DNA of 45,651 nt from contig WFWH01000021.1 in NCBI GenBank assembly GCA_015491245.1, positions 1 through 45,651 on the forward strand. Direction: 5' to 3'. Source of the DNA: Patescibacteria group bacterium (lineage in GTDB: Bacteria > Patescibacteriota > Minisyncoccia > Phycocordibacterales > UBA12088). Shown piece after piece: positions 12,211-19,549 of the stretch (within the stretch, counting starts at the first letter, position 1; every line of letters starts with the position of its first letter). The notes beneath the pieces were generated by a model, which saw only the letters and a program-made list of their open reading frames with translations, was not told the DNA's origin and ran no database searches. A program made the translations under genes and the position numbers.

Positions 12211-13309
12211 ATTTACATAAGTAGAAATTTTATATAAGGATTAGACAGGAAGCAAGCAGATCTTGCAATAATTATCTACATAAGTAGAAATTTTATATAA
12301 GGATTAGACACGCATTGCGTTTGCTACCTCCAAAATCTACATAAGTAGAAATTTTATATAAGGATTAGACAGCATAATAATTTCTGCGAGGACAGAAAAT
12401 CTACATAAGTAGAAATTTTATATAAGGATTAGACATGCGCAGTGAGCTCGCAGCCCTTGGATCTACATAAGTAGAAATTTTATATAAGGATTAGACCTGC
12501 ATAGGAATATGCAGAGCGTGGCAATCTACATAAGTAGAAATTTTATATAAGGATTAGACTGGTGCTTTGTGAAGTAGTAGACGGATCTACATAAGTAGAA
12601 ATTTTATATAAGGATTAGACGGGAAGGAGTGCACGCAATGCGTCCGAATCTACATAAGTAGAAATTTTATATAAGGATTAGACGATGTCAACGCCCATCC
12701 ACTGGTTCATATCTACATAAGTAGAAATTTTATATAAGGATTAGACTCCCTCTGCTGCGGTAATCGACATTAATCTACATAAGTAAAAATTTTATATAAG
12801 GATTAGACTGCGCAACCGTCACATCATGATCAGGATCTACATAAGTAGAAATTTTATATAAGGATTAGACCCGCAAGTGTGGTGAGCCGCTAACTACCAT
12901 CTACATAAGTAGAAATTTTATATAAGGATTAGACAGGGACGCCGGTGTGCGTTTGCCCATCATCTACATAAGTAGAAATTTTATATAAGGATTAGACTCG
13001 CAAAAAATGGCTCAACAAAGCCGATCTACATAAGTAGAAATTTTATATAAGGATTAGACCTGGCGGGTTGAGCAGGAGCGGCGGCTATCTACATAAGTAG
13101 AAATTTTATATAAGGATTAGACGCCAGAATAGCCAAACTAGCTGGTTTATCTACATAAGTAGAAATTTTATATAAGGATTAGACTGGCAAAAACAACTTC
13201 ACCGCAGTAGAATCTACATAAGTAGAAATTTTATATAAGGATTAGACTGGTCCGCTCTATGTCTTCGCGGGTAATCTACATAAGTAGAAATTTTATATAA
13301 GGATTAGAC
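12211..13309 (-). CRISPR. Type V-A CRISPR array: 18 x 36-bp repeats, 17 spacers (25-28 bp)
   Basis: Consensus on +: ATCTACATAAGTAGAAATTTTATATAAGGATTAGAC; crRNA sense (minus): GTCTAATCCTTATATAAAATTTCTACTTATGTAGAT with the Cas12a handle AATTTCTAC-TTAT-GTAGAT. Repeat starts: 12211, 12274, 12335, 12399, 12461, 12524, 12585, 12648, 12711, 12773, 12835, 12899, 12962, 13024, 13087, 13149, 13212, 13274. Variants: 12211 (C3T) and 12773 (G14A). Confidence 0.99.
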
Positions 13310-13657
13310 AGCTGATATGGCCTTGTTGAGCCATTTTCTGGAAAGGGGCGATAAATTATTTTCCAAAAAATCTTTATTTTTATTCACCCCCCTCATAGAA
13401 AGACCGAGGTTTTGCTTTTGAAGCGGTGGAAATACGGGGCGGAGGGAGCACCTATCGGCTTCCCCGCCCCGAAATTCCCATGAAAGAGGTGGGCGCGCCG
13501 AGCGCCGCCGCTTTACAACCTCTTATTACACAACTCAACCGGGCCGTCTAAACAATCCTTACACTGAAACTTCCACCTATGCCATTGCCGCCTCACTTCC
13601 CTCCATTTTCGCAGAGGAAAGTGAAACGGTACGGTATGGAATTTTCAATGTGCTTTC
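13310..13657 (-). promoter_or_regulatory. CRISPR leader region (cas2-array intergenic), AT-rich near the array
   Basis: Opposite end from the degenerate terminal repeat; minus strand reads GTGAATAAAAATAAAGATTTTTTGGAAAATAATTTATCGCC...; GC-rich hairpin CGGGGCG/CGCCCCG at 13435-13471 may terminate the cas operon. Confidence 0.7.
13546..13581 (+). repeat. Diverged CRISPR-repeat-like element, inverted relative to the array
   Basis: Minus strand CATAgGTgGAAgTTTcagTgTAAGGATtgttTAGAC versus repeat CATAAGTAGAAATTTTATATAAGGATTAGAC: ordered matching blocks, transitions, 4-nt and 1-nt insertions. Confidence 0.4.
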
Positions 13658-13939
13658 CTACGTGAATACCAGCACCTCCCCTTCTTCATTCGCCGCCGCA
13701 CCGTATCGGATTACCTTTTTCCTATCCGCCGGAGTGACCGGAATAATAAGTATGCTGTCGGCGCCGGTAAACTTCTTCTTATATTTTAATTCTACCTCAG
13801 CAAGGATATTTTGCAACACCCGCTCACTGTGGCGTACCTCAAACACCGAGTACTGCAGGCGGCGCCCATAGCGCGAAAGAAATTTGGCGAACTTCGCCCG
13901 CAACTTATCGTCTGAAAAATCGTAAGCTACCAGCAGCAT
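13658..13939 (-). CDS. cas2: CRISPR-associated endoribonuclease Cas2
   Basis: MLLVAYDFSDDKLRAKFAKFLSRYGRRLQYSVFEVRHSE; 93 aa; overlaps cas1. Confidence 0.95.
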   Translation of the reverse strand: MLLVAYDFSDDKLRAKFAKFLSRYGRRLQYSVFEVRHSERVLQNILAEVELKYKKKFTGADSILIIPVTPADRKKVIRYGAAANEEGEVLVFT

Positions 13940-15001: not shown

Positions 15002-15544
15002 CTACCACGCCAAGTTGCCGTAGATGCTACGCGCACCGCGCGCATCCACCTCCCTCTTTACCAAATCGCGCGCATTGAGCGCGCGCATGGCGCGCAGCAC
15101 CTCTTCCAGCTCTTTCCTGTCCTCGGCGCCGGGCAGGGGTATGCGGTAGCGTTTGTTGTCCTCCAGAGAATGGAGTGAAATTTTCTCCACTGGCATCCCG
15201 CCCTCCTCCAGCGCATACACCTGCGCATATATTTGCAAGACGTAGCCGCGGTACACCGCTTTTATCCTCGTCTTGCGCTCTATGAGATGCCGCGTGCGCG
15301 CATCATAAATATCAATGCGCCCTCCCACCTGCAGAGCCTCCGACCATGCATACAAGCCGGAAAGAACCTGCCGACTGGTGCTGTAGGTTCCCGCATCCAG
15401 ATTTTCGTGCAGCAATTTCCCTTTTACCTGCGGCTGCTGCTTATACGTCGCATCGGCATAGCCCATGTGCGCCCCGTGCAGGTAGAGCGATGCGCTGCTG
15501 AAAAGGAAATCGTTGATTTGCGAGAAGGTAATGTATTGCTCCAT
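15002..15544 (-). CDS. cas4: Cas4-like RecB-fold nuclease lacking all cysteines
   Basis: FSQINDFLFSSASLYLHG, KGKLLHENLD, GGRIDIYDARTRHLIERKTRIK, YRGYVLQIYAQVYAL; 180 aa; C-terminus DARGARSIYGNLAW with no Cys. Confidence 0.93.
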   Translation of the reverse strand: MEQYITFSQINDFLFSSASLYLHGAHMGYADATYKQQPQVKGKLLHENLDAGTYSTSRQVLSGLYAWSEALQVGGRIDIYDARTRHLIERKTRIKAVYRGYVLQIYAQVYALEEGGMPVEKISLHSLEDNKRYRIPLPGAEDRKELEEVLRAMRALNARDLVKREVDARGARSIYGNLAW

Positions 15545-15646: not shown

Positions 15647-18600
15647 CTACTTGAGGCGGGTAAACACTTCCTGATCCCACAGCGCGCGCTTGACGTACAG
15701 ATCGGGGTCGGCGCGGCCGGAGCGCAGCTGCTCCAGCGCGATCAACCCTTTGCGGGCGATGTTGTAGGCACCGACCGCATCACCGTTTTTAAGGTGCGCA
15801 TCTTCTGCGCGGGTGTCAAACCCGCAACGCGGGCACTGCAAAAAATCCACCTCCTCCTGCTCCTTCTCTCCCTCACGGTAGTGGTTGCGTATCTGCAATA
15901 AGGTGTTGAGGTAGTACACAAACGCCCGCCACGTGGCGGCGTCATCGCAGGCGAGCATTTCTTCCATCACGTTGTTGCCGCTCTGAATCGCCGTACCCAT
16001 GCCGGCCACCGCGCCGGAAAAGCCAGGCAGCGCCCCCTCCGGCGCCCCCGCGCCCACCACGCGGCGCAGGGCATCGGTCAGTGCGGCGGCGCTTATGGCA
16101 ACCGTCTTGCGGGTGGCCGCATCCCACCGCAGGCGATCCACGGCGCTGGTGAGGCGCACGGTGCCGCCGTCTTCTTCGCGACGATACGTAATGTGGATGG
16201 CGCCTTCCTCGCCGTACAATTCTTCTATCCTGCGCTCAACCTCTTTCTTAACTTGCTCCACTCCCCCGCCCCGGTAATTGAGATAGAGATCTTTCCGCCA
16301 ACCGCACTGCGGACACGTGGTGGAAGTGTAATCCGGGGATACGAAGAATACGATGCCGTGTTGCCCCTGCAATTTTTGCAGTGAGACGGTAGCGCGCTTA
16401 CCTTCCCGCAAACAAACCAGTTGCGGTGCGGAAAACGCATGGGGGTTTTCTTTGTCTATCACCAACTGTAGCTTTTCCAGCAGCGCTTTTTGGAATTGCT
16501 GGTATACGCTGCGCTCAAATTGCCCACCGCGCTTTTGCATAAAGCGAAAATGAAGGTTCTCCAACGCGATTACCGCATCATGCTCCAGCGCTTTTTGCAC
16601 GAGGAAATGCATCACGTGCGAAAGGTAGCCCGCTTTGAGTTTGGCGATGTTTTCCACCGCGCGCCACTGCTGTTTCGCCTCCTTGCGCTCCTGCGCGCGT
16701 GCCTCCAACAAGCGCGCGTAGTCGGCGCCTCCGATGGTGTTCAGGTCACCCCCCTCGCGATAGCGGCCGCGGGCATCGACCAGCGCCCAGTACAGCAAGT
16801 GTCTCTCGCCGCGATCAACGCCCAGCACCGCGCGCGGGATCTCCAAAAGTTTAACCCTGACTTCCTCATTGAATTCTTTGTGTTGACGCTCCTTGAGATG
16901 ATTATTGATTTTAACAGGAAAATGAAAGTGCAGTTTGCGCTCGTAGTAGCGATGTTGCTCGTACACCGGCTCATCGCCGCGGCGGGCCAGTTTGCCGCTC
17001 GCCAGCATTTTGGCATGCGGCTTGTCTTCACGGCGGTCGCGGAGGAAAATCTTTCCGCTGCCAGCCAGCATGAAGCGCAAAGGCACCTGCGACATATTCT
17101 CATCGGAGAAGAGCGTGCGGAAGAGAATGGTGTGGGTGTTGGGAGCGCCACATGCGCGGGTGCACAGGTCTTTGTTGCAGATGCGGAAGAGGAGTACCTT
17201 TCCCTCGCCGACCAAACGGTCCAGCAGCGCCACATCAAGGGGCTGCCACCACGCTTTGACGGCTTGCTGCCTGACGTCGCCGACAAACTCCTCGTAAGAG
17301 TCGTAGCGCTCTTTGAACGAGAAACTCAGTCCCGTGCCCCTCCTCTCGTGGTACTGTATCAGGCATTTCTTGTAGTACTCAATGAAAGTGTCAATGGCGT
17401 CCCCCACCACTTCACGTGCAAGTTTTTTTCCGTAACCGTATTTCTCAACTAGTGCAAACACCTCGGCGGGCAGATGCTTTCGCTTGTGCTCTCTCAAAAT
17501 CTTGTTTTCTCCTCCCTGCCTTGCGCCGGTCTTTCTCGTCGCCACGCCGTTTATCATCATCAGATTGGGAATATCTTTCGCGGGGTCGGCCATTATCTGC
17601 AGCATAAACATTTCCCACTCCGGTTTCCCGCCGCCGCGGTGCGCGGTAGGGGCGTTTTCGCAGAGCGCGCGGACGGCTGCGGCGCCGCTGAACACCGCAA
17701 GGTGCAGGGCGCCTTCCCCGTCTCTCACGAACAGCCCGAGGTTGTCACTCAGTTTGGTTTTGCTCCATCCTTCAAGAAAATTCGGTGAGAAATACACGCG
17801 CACCTCTTTGGGCACATCGGTCACCTTCGTCAGATAGTTGCGAATTTTGTTGAATGCTTTTTGTGGCCGCAGTTCCGCGATGCGGTGCTCCAACAGCCGC
17901 CACGCGTCATAAAATGCCGTGTCTTTGCTCTCCTCCGGAATAGCATCAAGCGCGTCTTCCTTTCCCTTATTGGTGCGGACACGGAAGGTGTGCTCTAGGC
18001 GCGCCAGCTCCACATACGCTTCCAAATATTCACGCCACGCCCGCACCATCGCTTCCCATGCTCCCTTGGCGGGACGGCGCTTTCGGGCAACCGCCGCGCG
18101 CAATTCCGCCACGGCATCGTCAAACTTTTTCTGAAGGGAGGGGAGCGGCTTAAAGGCGGCTTTGGCGCGATGATCCGCGTGCACCGAGCGCACCTCGCCG
18201 CCTGTGATGCGCGCCAAGGTGTTATAGCGCCACCGCGCCACAAAATCCTCCCAAGAAAGCGGCGCGCCGTCGCCGAGACGCCGCCATGCCGTACCGCTTT
18301 GCTCTACTAAATTGCGCAGTGCGCCTAATGTAGTGTAATCCTTGGAAATCGCCTTCTTGCCGCGAAAGAGGTCGTTTAGCGCCTGCCACTCGCTTAAAAT
18401 TTCTTGCGCCACTGCGCGCACCGTACTCTTGTGGAGGTAGATTTTTTCCTCTTGGTGCCCGCCGCGCTCAAGCTTTGCAAAGAAATCCTCAAAGAAACGG
18501 CGCGCCTGCGCCCACAGCAACGGCGCCTGTTCGGCAACATGCTCCAAAACTTCCAGCAGCGCTTGGTCGCTATCAATGTACTCCACGCGCAGCTCCCTCG

Positions 18601-19549
18601 GAGCGCCGATTTGCCGGTACAGCGGCACCAAGTGCGGCAGCGGGCGCTCATCTTTAGAGCGCGTTTGGTTGAAGTGGTTGATGCGCTGGTTAATGCCCTC
18701 CTCGGAAACTTCGCCCGCCTCGCCCCCTGCGCCGCCAATTTTTCGGTTGTACTCCTCAATGCCGCGGTAGCTGAGTACGCGATTGAACGCCCGAGGGGAA
18801 AACATCTCCACCTCGTCCGGCGCCAGCTTGAGCTCCTTCTGGCGAGGGCGAAGGTGTTGTTCAAACACAACGCAATTGCGGGCAAAAAAACCGAGGTTTT
18901 CAACAACACGGCGGGCTATCGTGCCGCTTTGAAGCTCTCCCTTGAAGTAATGCTCTCTGTTGAGCTTGAGGTCTTTCAATGCGGAAGAGAACTTTTCAAA
19001 AGCGGCGAGGTGACGGAGGAACTCTTGATTATCGGCATAGTGCCTTTTCAGCAGCGCAAAGATTTTTTCAGATTTGGCGAAGTCGTCAATGGTTGCCCCG
19101 TGTAATTTTTCGCTCCGGAAAGGCCCGGCGGCAGCGCCGGCGTTCTTTTTGCCGCCTCCTGTACCGAAAAAGGCACCGACCTTGCGGGCGATATCCTGCT
19201 CTAGTTTCCGCAATTCTCCAGCTAGCGCACGACGCCGCTTGGCGTCCGATGCGCGCGCCATATCTCGCCGCACCGCAAGGTATCTCTCAATGTCGTGCAA
19301 ATCCAAAGCGAGACGCTCCAGCGCGTCGTCAATAAAAACGGCGAGCAGCTCGTTCATTTTCTCCTTGAGATGCGGCCGCGCGGCATTGCGCTTCCGGTCT
19401 TCGGGAAAGATATCCCGCGCATCGCGCGCTTCCCAATTAATGTGCTGCGCGGTCGCCGCGGCGGGCTTAAGCTCAAACCGCAACGTTTTCGTCAACGGAA
19501 ATTTCTCATTGAAATCTTTAAAGCGTGGGTTCGCATCAGGAGACGGCAT
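15647..19549 (-). CDS. cas12a: Type V-A effector nuclease Cas12a (Cpf1), 1300 aa
   Basis: FNEKFPLTKTLRFELKP N-terminus; RuvC-I GVDRGERHLLYWALVD; bridge helix WRAVENIAKLKAGYLSHVMHFL; RuvC-II AVIALENLHFRF...RSVYQQFQKALLEKL; RuvC-III GDAVGAYNIARKGL. Confidence 0.98.
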   Translation of the reverse strand: MPSPDANPRFKDFNEKFPLTKTLRFELKPAAATAQHINWEARDARDIFPEDRKRNAARPHLKEKMNELLAVFIDDALERLALDLHDIERYLAVRRDMARASDAKRRRALAGELRKLEQDIARKVGAFFGTGGGKKNAGAAAGPFRSEKLHGATIDDFAKSEKIFALLKRHYADNQEFLRHLAAFEKFSSALKDLKLNREHYFKGELQSGTIARRVVENLGFFARNCVVFEQHLRPRQKELKLAPDEVEMFSPRAFNRVLSYRGIEEYNRKIGGAGGEAGEVSEEGINQRINHFNQTRSKDERPLPHLVPLYRQIGAPRELRVEYIDSDQALLEVLEHVAEQAPLLWAQARRFFEDFFAKLERGGHQEEKIYLHKSTVRAVAQEILSEWQALNDLFRGKKAISKDYTTLGALRNLVEQSGTAWRRLGDGAPLSWEDFVARWRYNTLARITGGEVRSVHADHRAKAAFKPLPSLQKKFDDAVAELRAAVARKRRPAKGAWEAMVRAWREYLEAYVELARLEHTFRVRTNKGKEDALDAIPEESKDTAFYDAWRLLEHRIAELRPQKAFNKIRNYLTKVTDVPKEVRVYFSPNFLEGWSKTKLSDNLGLFVRDGEGALHLAVFSGAAAVRALCENAPTAHRGGGKPEWEMFMLQIMADPAKDIPNLMMINGVATRKTGARQGGENKILREHKRKHLPAEVFALVEKYGYGKKLAREVVGDAIDTFIEYYKKCLIQYHERRGTGLSFSFKERYDSYEEFVGDVRQQAVKAWWQPLDVALLDRLVGEGKVLLFRICNKDLCTRACGAPNTHTILFRTLFSDENMSQVPLRFMLAGSGKIFLRDRREDKPHAKMLASGKLARRGDEPVYEQHRYYERKLHFHFPVKINNHLKERQHKEFNEEVRVKLLEIPRAVLGVDRGERHLLYWALVDARGRYREGGDLNTIGGADYARLLEARAQERKEAKQQWRAVENIAKLKAGYLSHVMHFLVQKALEHDAVIALENLHFRFMQKRGGQFERSVYQQFQKALLEKLQLVIDKENPHAFSAPQLVCLREGKRATVSLQKLQGQHGIVFFVSPDYTSTTCPQCGWRKDLYLNYRGGGVEQVKKEVERRIEELYGEEGAIHITYRREEDGGTVRLTSAVDRLRWDAATRKTVAISAAALTDALRRVVGAGAPEGALPGFSGAVAGMGTAIQSGNNVMEEMLACDDAATWRAFVYYLNTLLQIRNHYREGEKEQEEVDFLQCPRCGFDTRAEDAHLKNGDAVGAYNIARKGLIALEQLRSGRADPDLYVKRALWDQEVFTRLK

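What the first reader, a model, noticed from the sequence alone, without database searches (positions are those of the whole stretch)
12998..13343. Spacer 13 matches the array's own leader-proximal sequence
Seen in sequence: spacer 13 (12998-13023) in crRNA sense is CGGCTTTGTTGAGCCATTTTTTGCGA. The + strand at 13318-13343, 9 bp past the first repeat, is TGGCCTTGTTGAGCCATTTTCTGGAA: 21/26 identical with a 15-nt uninterrupted run (TTGTTGAGCCATTTT). The crRNA would therefore be antisense to the pre-crRNA leader transcript and would address the leader DNA. The 5' flank on the protospacer strand is GATA, not the usual T-rich Cas12a PAM, and positions 1 and 5 mismatch, so cleavage should be disfavoured. 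Hypotheses: (a) a partially matching guide that tunes array expression or acquisition, analogous to known partial-match autoregulatory guides such as CreR-type RNAs; (b) a spacer taken from a related CRISPR leader on a competing strain or mobile element; (c) chance.
Basis: partly seen in the sequence, partly recalled or inferred. Interest (0 to 1): 0.7.

Follow-up and report, generated by a model that had tools for sequence, protein, structure and literature searches.

The report
Cas12a spacer resembles a CRISPR leader stem-loop
One immune-memory spacer of a Patescibacteria Cas12a CRISPR array closely resembles the control region just in front of that array, in a spot that turns out to be part of a conserved and apparently undescribed RNA hairpin shared by many Cas12a leaders; the spacer was perhaps copied from another CRISPR locus, but it probably cannot cut its own leader, and chance resemblance is not excluded.

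Summary
Spacer 12998-13023 matches leader 13318-13343 at 21/26 positions with a 15-nt run, on the strand stated. It is the fifth spacer from the leader. Chance is small per array (1 of 100,000 shuffles reaches 21/26), and the next-best own-leader run among the other V-A spacers is 10 nt.

The window's own leader keeps only the repeat-proximal arm. The spacer also shares 12-15 nt with arms of other V-A leaders.

Against a leader origin: no candidate has a TTTN PAM although cas4 is intact; no near copy was found; and the spacer has a longer (20-nt) run in another species' cas12a gene, which is not its full source either.

Best reading: an inert spacer captured from a related V-A leader (about 45%); chance resemblance comes close (about 38%). 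A CreR-like guide is poorly supported: no PAM, mismatches at guide positions 1 and 5, no equivalent in 29 other arrays. The leader stem-loop is the more durable result.

The parts
12998..13023 (-). spacer (13th from the low end, 5th from the leader); crRNA sense CGGCTTTGTTGAGCCATTTTTTGCGA
13318..13343 (+). leader segment resembling the spacer (21/26, 15-nt run); 5' flank GATA, no TTTV PAM
13319..13332 (-). leader-end palindrome GGCTCAACAAGGCC, 9 nt before the first repeat; corresponds to the repeat-proximal arm of the conserved V-A leader stem-loop
13310..13390 (-). degenerate remnant of the leader stem-loop (model R1 only 7.5 bits; proximal arm kept, distal arm and core not recognisable)
13399..13412 (-). 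conserved leader motif AAACCTCGGTCTTT found in most V-A leaders examined
13310..13657 (-). leader / cas2-array intergenic region
12211..13309 (-). V-A CRISPR array: 18 repeats of GTCTAATCCTTATATAAAATTTCTACTTATGTAGAT, 17 spacers of 25-28 nt
13658..13939 (-). cas2
   Evidence: PF09827, TIGR01573
13927..14973 (-). cas1 (V-A type)
   Evidence: PF01867; best NCBIfam match TIGR04329 cas1_PREFRAN, 285 bits against cut-off 300
15002..15544 (-). cas4 (type V)
   Evidence: TIGR04328 above cut-off
15647..19549 (-). cas12a
   Evidence: TIGR04330 above cut-off; PF18501, PF18516

Best explanation
The spacer is an ordinary-length V-A spacer captured by Cas1-Cas2-Cas4 from the leader of a related type V-A CRISPR locus (another strain or a mobile element), not from the present own leader. 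The piece captured is an arm of a conserved leader stem-loop, so it resembles its own leader without being identical to it. Own-leader DNA is spared because it has GATA where Cas12a expects TTTV and mismatches at guide positions 1 and 5. The guide is therefore most likely inert, or at most pairs as antisense RNA with the leader part of the pre-crRNA. Shown: the match, its position on a covarying leader stem-loop, similarity to arms of other V-A leaders, absence of a T-rich PAM. Inferred: capture from a sister leader, and inertness.
For: Match and statistics. The matched segment lies at the same distance (9 nt) from the first repeat as the repeat-proximal stem arm in related loci: GGCTTAACCAAGCC in L132, GCTCAACAAAGCC in L131, GGCTCAACAAGGCC in the window. 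The stem-loop is real by covariation: 17 of 21 pairs with changes on both sides, 91.8% of cells paired, 0/500 shuffles. A model of it finds V-A leaders blindly: G420 was found by the model, not by Cas1, and the element sits directly before a 23-repeat V-A array. The spacer shares 15 nt (GGCTTTGTTGAGCCA) with the L244 arm, 13 with L131 and L234, 12 with L235: it takes the top four places among 15,990 spacer-leader comparisons. At guide position 5, where the spacer differs from its own leader, it agrees with the family consensus. Only two substitutions in 648 nt of repeats make 5/26 post-capture changes implausible, so the source should be a different leader. In F. novicida V-A, spacers come preferentially from plasmids that carry cas genes or the adaptation module (PMC13034035).
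Against: No full-length source found: no copy with up to 3 mismatches in samples of 397 genomes of the order and 380 of the phylum, no convincing hit in IMG/VR, phages or plasmids, and no V-A Cas1 on virus or plasmid records. Neither the own leader (GATA) nor the family consensus (GAAA) offers the TTTN PAM that Cas4 enforces in V-A (PMC13034035), and cas4 here looks intact. The spacer also has a 20-nt run in the L131 cas12a gene; that run is longer than the leader run and shows that striking partial matches need not be the source. Shuffled sets of all 533 spacers contain a run of 15 or more against some leader in 51 of 400 cases. No other array has a leader-derived spacer.
Confidence: 0.45

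Rival explanations
1. Chance: the spacer comes from an unsequenced phage or plasmid gene and resembles the leader by coincidence.
For: Most spacers come from mobile elements and those of Patescibacteria are poorly sampled. No candidate has a TTTN PAM. The spacer has an equally striking 20-nt partial match in cas12a of another species that cannot be its full source. The finding was picked from a whole window, so the per-array chance of roughly 1e-4 must be multiplied by the number of arrays and windows screened.
Against: 1 of 100,000 shuffles reaches 21/26 in the leader region; own-leader runs of all other spacers examined are 10 nt or less; the match falls on the one conserved leader element and also fits arms of several other leaders.
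Confidence: 0.38
2. A selected partial-match guide (CreR-like) or antisense crRNA that tunes expression or processing of the array.
For: The RNA duplex between this spacer and the leader is -37.7 kcal/mol with 24 of 26 positions pairable (three of the five DNA mismatches become G-U); the other spacers reach -9 to -23. The predicted pre-crRNA fold pairs them, -112.7 against -97.0 +/- 1.8 kcal/mol with the spacer shuffled. Precedents: CreR in type V-A (PMC12737573) and sRNA PhrS acting on a CRISPR leader (PMC6700203).
Against: No PAM and mismatches at guide positions 1 and 5; the target is not a cas promoter; the guide sits inside the array and is not a stand-alone crRNA-like gene; no leader-matching spacer in 29 other V-A arrays. 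Cas12a is a DNA-targeting enzyme.
Confidence: 0.06
3. The spacer was taken from the cas12a gene of a competing V-A locus.
For: 20-nt exact run TGTTGAGCCATTTTTTGCGA in L131 cas12a, coding VEPFFA; only about 10 of 300,000 shuffles of the spacer reach 20 nt in 249 kb of V-A loci. V-A spacers are reported to come preferentially from cas-bearing plasmids (PMC13034035).
Against: The six 5' (seed) bases do not match, because they fall on the SP codons; 'SP[VI]' or a CPxC motif, never 'GFV', stands there in nearly all related Cas12a sequences examined. The 5' flank is TCGC, not TTTN.
Confidence: 0.06
4. Self-capture from the own leader followed by mutation.
For: Same genome, same element.
Against: 5/26 differences against 2 substitutions in 648 nt of repeats in the same array; only four spacers are younger; no TTTN PAM.
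Confidence: 0.05

Closest known systems
Self-matching / CRISPR-locus-matching spacers (PMC6990116; V-A acquisition in PMC13034035)
   Same: A spacer resembling the cell's own DNA, tolerated through a missing PAM and seed mismatches.
   Different: The target is the array's own leader stem-loop, the match is only partial, and the review text searched contains no occurrence of the word 'leader'.
CreR-type crRNA-like autorepressors (PMC12737573)
   Same: Partial complementarity to a regulatory region of the own CRISPR-cas locus; described for type I and V-A.
   Different: CreR recognises the cas operon promoter; here the guide is an ordinary array spacer, the target is the array leader, and there is no T-rich PAM.
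Leader-repeat hairpins of type VI arrays (PMC13187072)
   Same: Structured leader RNA directly upstream of the first repeat.
   Different: The V-A stem-loop closes within the leader, about 9 nt before the repeat, and does not use the repeat; in V-A the superfluous crRNA would come from the last repeat (inference from repeat-guide order).
Virus-borne mini-CRISPR arrays with host-like leaders (PMC6858448)
   Same: Show that CRISPR leaders can travel on viruses and so could be captured as protospacers.
   Different: Archaeal; no virus-borne V-A Cas1 or canonical V-A leader core was found in IMG/VR.
sRNA PhrS, which base-pairs with a CRISPR leader (PMC6700203)
   Same: RNA antisense to a leader transcript.
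   Different: PhrS is a separate host sRNA acting on Rho termination in type I-F, not a crRNA.

Membership tests
Type V-A CRISPR-Cas locus | cas12a with cas4-cas1-cas2 and a repeat ending in the TTTCTACT...GTAGAT handle | tested here: met
   TIGR04330, TIGR04328 and TIGR01573 above cut-off; Cas1 best match TIGR04329 at 285 bits (cut-off 300); repeat GTCTAATCCTTATATAAAATTTCTACTTATGTAGAT
Functional Cas12a self-target | TTTV/TTTN PAM 5' of the protospacer | tested here: not met
   13314-13317 is GATA; the PAM of this particular Cas12a is not known
Functional Cas12a self-target | seed (about guide positions 1-6) without mismatches | tested here: not met
   mismatches at positions 1 and 5
CreR autorepressor | target is the promoter of the cognate cas operon | tested here: not met
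   target is the array leader downstream of cas2; cas12a, the first gene of the operon, starts at 19549 on the - strand
CreR autorepressor | stand-alone crRNA-like gene outside the immune array | tested here: not met
   the guide is the 5th spacer of a regular 17-spacer array
CreR autorepressor | represses in vivo with Cas12a | not testable with these tools
   needs a reporter assay
Spacer captured from a V-A leader | full-length match to a V-A leader | tested here: not met
   best partial matches: 21/26 own leader, 15-nt run in L244, 13 in L131 and L234; only a limited set of leaders was available
Conserved V-A leader stem-loop (this report) | covarying stem with AAAAAGTCG / TTTGCATCTTT core ending about 9 nt before the first repeat | tested here: inconclusive
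   related loci mostly 67-98 bits; window 7.5 bits, only the proximal arm and the leader end retained

The most novel reading that the evidence does not exclude
The spacer restores, in trans or in cis on the pre-crRNA, the lost partner arm of a conserved V-A leader stem-loop: its RNA pairs with the leader end at 24 of 26 positions and thereby controls pre-crRNA processing, transcription or new spacer integration at the leader-repeat junction.
Probability: 0.04. Interest if true: 0.85.

Novelty: new variant of a known kind. Interest (0 to 1): 0.42.

Why it matters
If the spacer really came from a CRISPR leader, V-A systems can record other V-A loci, which would fit laboratory reports that V-A adaptation draws preferentially on cas-bearing DNA. 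Whatever its source, following it exposed a conserved, covarying stem-loop in the leaders of Patescibacteria V-A arrays that has no Rfam family and was not found in the papers searched. It gives V-A leaders a testable structural element, at RNA or DNA level, right at the spacer-integration site, and a model (R1) that found a V-A array without using any protein.

Tried and rejected
17-20-nt core patterns gave no convincing protospacer; the best was 22/26 in L172, inside a protein-coding frame. An insertion-sequence or terminator origin was considered because the spacer reads like a 4-bp hairpin plus a T-run; it was dropped because the 15-mer has no other exact copy in the genome and the palindrome lies at a conserved leader position. 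Rfam gave only spurious miRNA matches. A leader-repeat hairpin of the type VI kind was rejected because the stem closes within the leader in the sequences aligned. CreR membership was rejected on the tested features. Virus-borne V-A leaders were sought and not found. One other spacer (the 1st from the leader) tried in IMG/VR gave nothing, so the native PAM could not be derived.

Full report
OBSERVATION. The window carries a complete type V-A locus on the - strand: cas12a (15647-19549), cas4, cas1 and cas2, a 348-nt gap, then an array of 18 repeats and 17 spacers read from 13309 down to 12211. The match to 13318-13343 is exactly as described: 21/26, a 15-nt run, flank GATA, mismatches at guide positions 1 and 5. 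The 15-mer has no other exact copy in the 866-kb genome, and the leader itself is single-copy.

CHANCE. Only 1 of 100,000 mononucleotide shuffles of the spacer, and 0 of 20,000 real window 26-mers, reach 21/26 in the 348-nt gap; 0 of 30,000 dinucleotide shuffles do. Sets of 17 dinucleotide-shuffled spacers contain a run of 15 or more in 11 of 20,000 trials. Among 533 spacers of 30 V-A arrays the own-leader run is 15 nt for this spacer and at most 10 nt for all others. The per-array probability is therefore about 1e-4. This is small, but the finding was picked out of a whole window and of an unknown number of windows, so chance is not dismissed.

WHAT THE LEADER SEGMENT IS. Related V-A loci were collected by Cas1. 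Their leaders share an AAACCT..GTCTTTAT-like motif and, in most Patescibacteria, a stem-loop ending about 9 nt before the first repeat: distal arm (AAAATGGCTTTGTTGAGCC), AAAAAGTCG, an inner hairpin, TTTGCATCTTT, proximal arm (GGCTCAACAAAGCC), ATTTCCGCT, repeat. On 14 sequences 17 of 21 pairs show changes on both sides with pairing kept, 91.8% of cells pair, no shuffle of 500 reaches the observed values, and sliding the partners destroys the signal. G-U pairs are accepted at about half of the positions, which points to RNA. Rfam has no such family. A covariance model finds the element in 12 of 384 genomes of the class. Eleven of these also have the V-A Cas1, and the twelfth, found by the model alone, is directly followed by a 23-repeat V-A array. 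Most of these sequences were in the training set; G420 and G506 were not.

THE WINDOW'S OWN LEADER. It keeps the leader motif, the proximal arm as a self-complementary palindrome GGCTCAACAAGGCC, and the leader end, but the model scores only 7.5 bits: the distal arm and the conserved core are not recognisable.

THE SPACER AND OTHER LEADERS. The spacer shares GGCTTTGTTGAGCCA (15 nt) with the L244 arm, 13 nt with arms of L131 and L234, and 12 nt with the L235 arm flank; it takes the first four places among 15,990 spacer-leader comparisons. None of 200,000 shuffles of this spacer hits four leaders at 13 nt or more; 2 of 400 shuffled sets of all 533 spacers do. At guide position 5 the spacer agrees with the family consensus and not with its own leader. 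Because the repeats carry only 2 substitutions in 648 nt, five changes in 26 nt after capture are implausible, so a different but related leader would be the source.

COUNTER-EVIDENCE. The spacer also has a 20-nt exact run in cas12a of L131, a Sungbacteria locus, coding VEPFFA (about 10 of 300,000 spacer shuffles reach this). Its six 5' bases do not match there because they fall on the SP codons, and 'GFV' stands in no related Cas12a examined. So neither the leader nor cas12a is a complete source, and at least one of two improbable partial matches is a coincidence. No TTTN PAM is found at any candidate (GATA own leader, GAAA consensus leader, TCGC cas12a), whereas Cas4 enforces TTTN in F. novicida V-A (PMC13034035) and cas4 here is intact by profile. 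No copy with 3 mismatches or fewer was found in order- and phylum-level samples, and nothing convincing in IMG/VR core scans, phages or plasmids. On the other side, the same paper reports that V-A acquires spacers preferentially from cas-bearing plasmids, which raises the prior for locus-derived spacers.

FUNCTION. DNA targeting of the own leader should not occur: no T-rich PAM and two seed mismatches. At RNA level the complementarity is better than it looks in DNA: three of the five mismatches become G-U, the duplex is -37.7 kcal/mol (other spacers -9 to -23), and in the predicted pre-crRNA the spacer and the leader end pair across four repeat-spacer units (-112.7 against -97.0 +/- 1.8 kcal/mol with the spacer shuffled). 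Whether this matters is unknown. No other array shows an equivalent, which argues against a conserved regulatory role.

COMPARISON. CreR guides act on cas promoters and are crRNA-like RNAs separate from the immune spacers (PMC12737573); both features fail here. Leader-repeat hairpins of type VI involve the first repeat (PMC13187072), unlike the V-A stem-loop. Virus-borne mini-arrays show that leaders can move on viruses (PMC6858448), but none of V-A type was found. PhrS shows that RNA antisense to a leader can regulate a CRISPR locus (PMC6700203).

VERDICT. Observation confirmed; interpretation partly supported. Best explanation: an inert spacer resembling, and perhaps captured from, a V-A leader stem-loop arm (0.45), with chance close behind (0.38). 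The conserved leader stem-loop is the more robust outcome. The novelty grade refers to that stem-loop as a new variant of structured CRISPR leaders; the leader-like spacer alone would be a new member of the known kind of self-matching spacers.

Noticed in passing
L130-L136, L234-L245, L261 (leaders): Conserved, covarying stem-loop in Patescibacteria V-A leaders ending about 9 nt before the first repeat, with AAAAAGTCG / TTTGCATCTTT core; no Rfam family. Model R1 finds V-A arrays by itself.
   Followed up: yes
window 15647-19549: The window's Cas12a carries CPxC pairs (TCPQCGWRK and QCPRCGFDTR) like the zinc ribbon of Cas12f/TnpB (weak PF07282 match) where many Cas12a have SPV; L130, L220, L222 and L223 also have a CPxC motif there.
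   Followed up: partly
L131 4002-4021: 20-nt exact run between the window spacer and the cas12a gene of a Sungbacteria V-A locus; the six 5' bases of the spacer do not match.
   Followed up: yes
window 12211-12246: The leader-distal repeat has a substitution in the crRNA stem (GTAGAT to GTAAAT), as expected if the superfluous crRNA of the last repeat is disabled.
   Followed up: no
window 12773-12808: One internal repeat has a substitution in the crRNA stem (TTTCTACT to TTTTTACT).
   Followed up: no
window 12310-12334 and 12621-12647: Two other spacers share the complementary 11-mer ACGCAATGCGT / ACGCATTGCGT.
   Followed up: no
L006 3-797: In genome G005 (same family) the V-A type cas1-cas2 follow a different effector C-terminus that matches no NCBIfam family; the contig is truncated.
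   Followed up: partly
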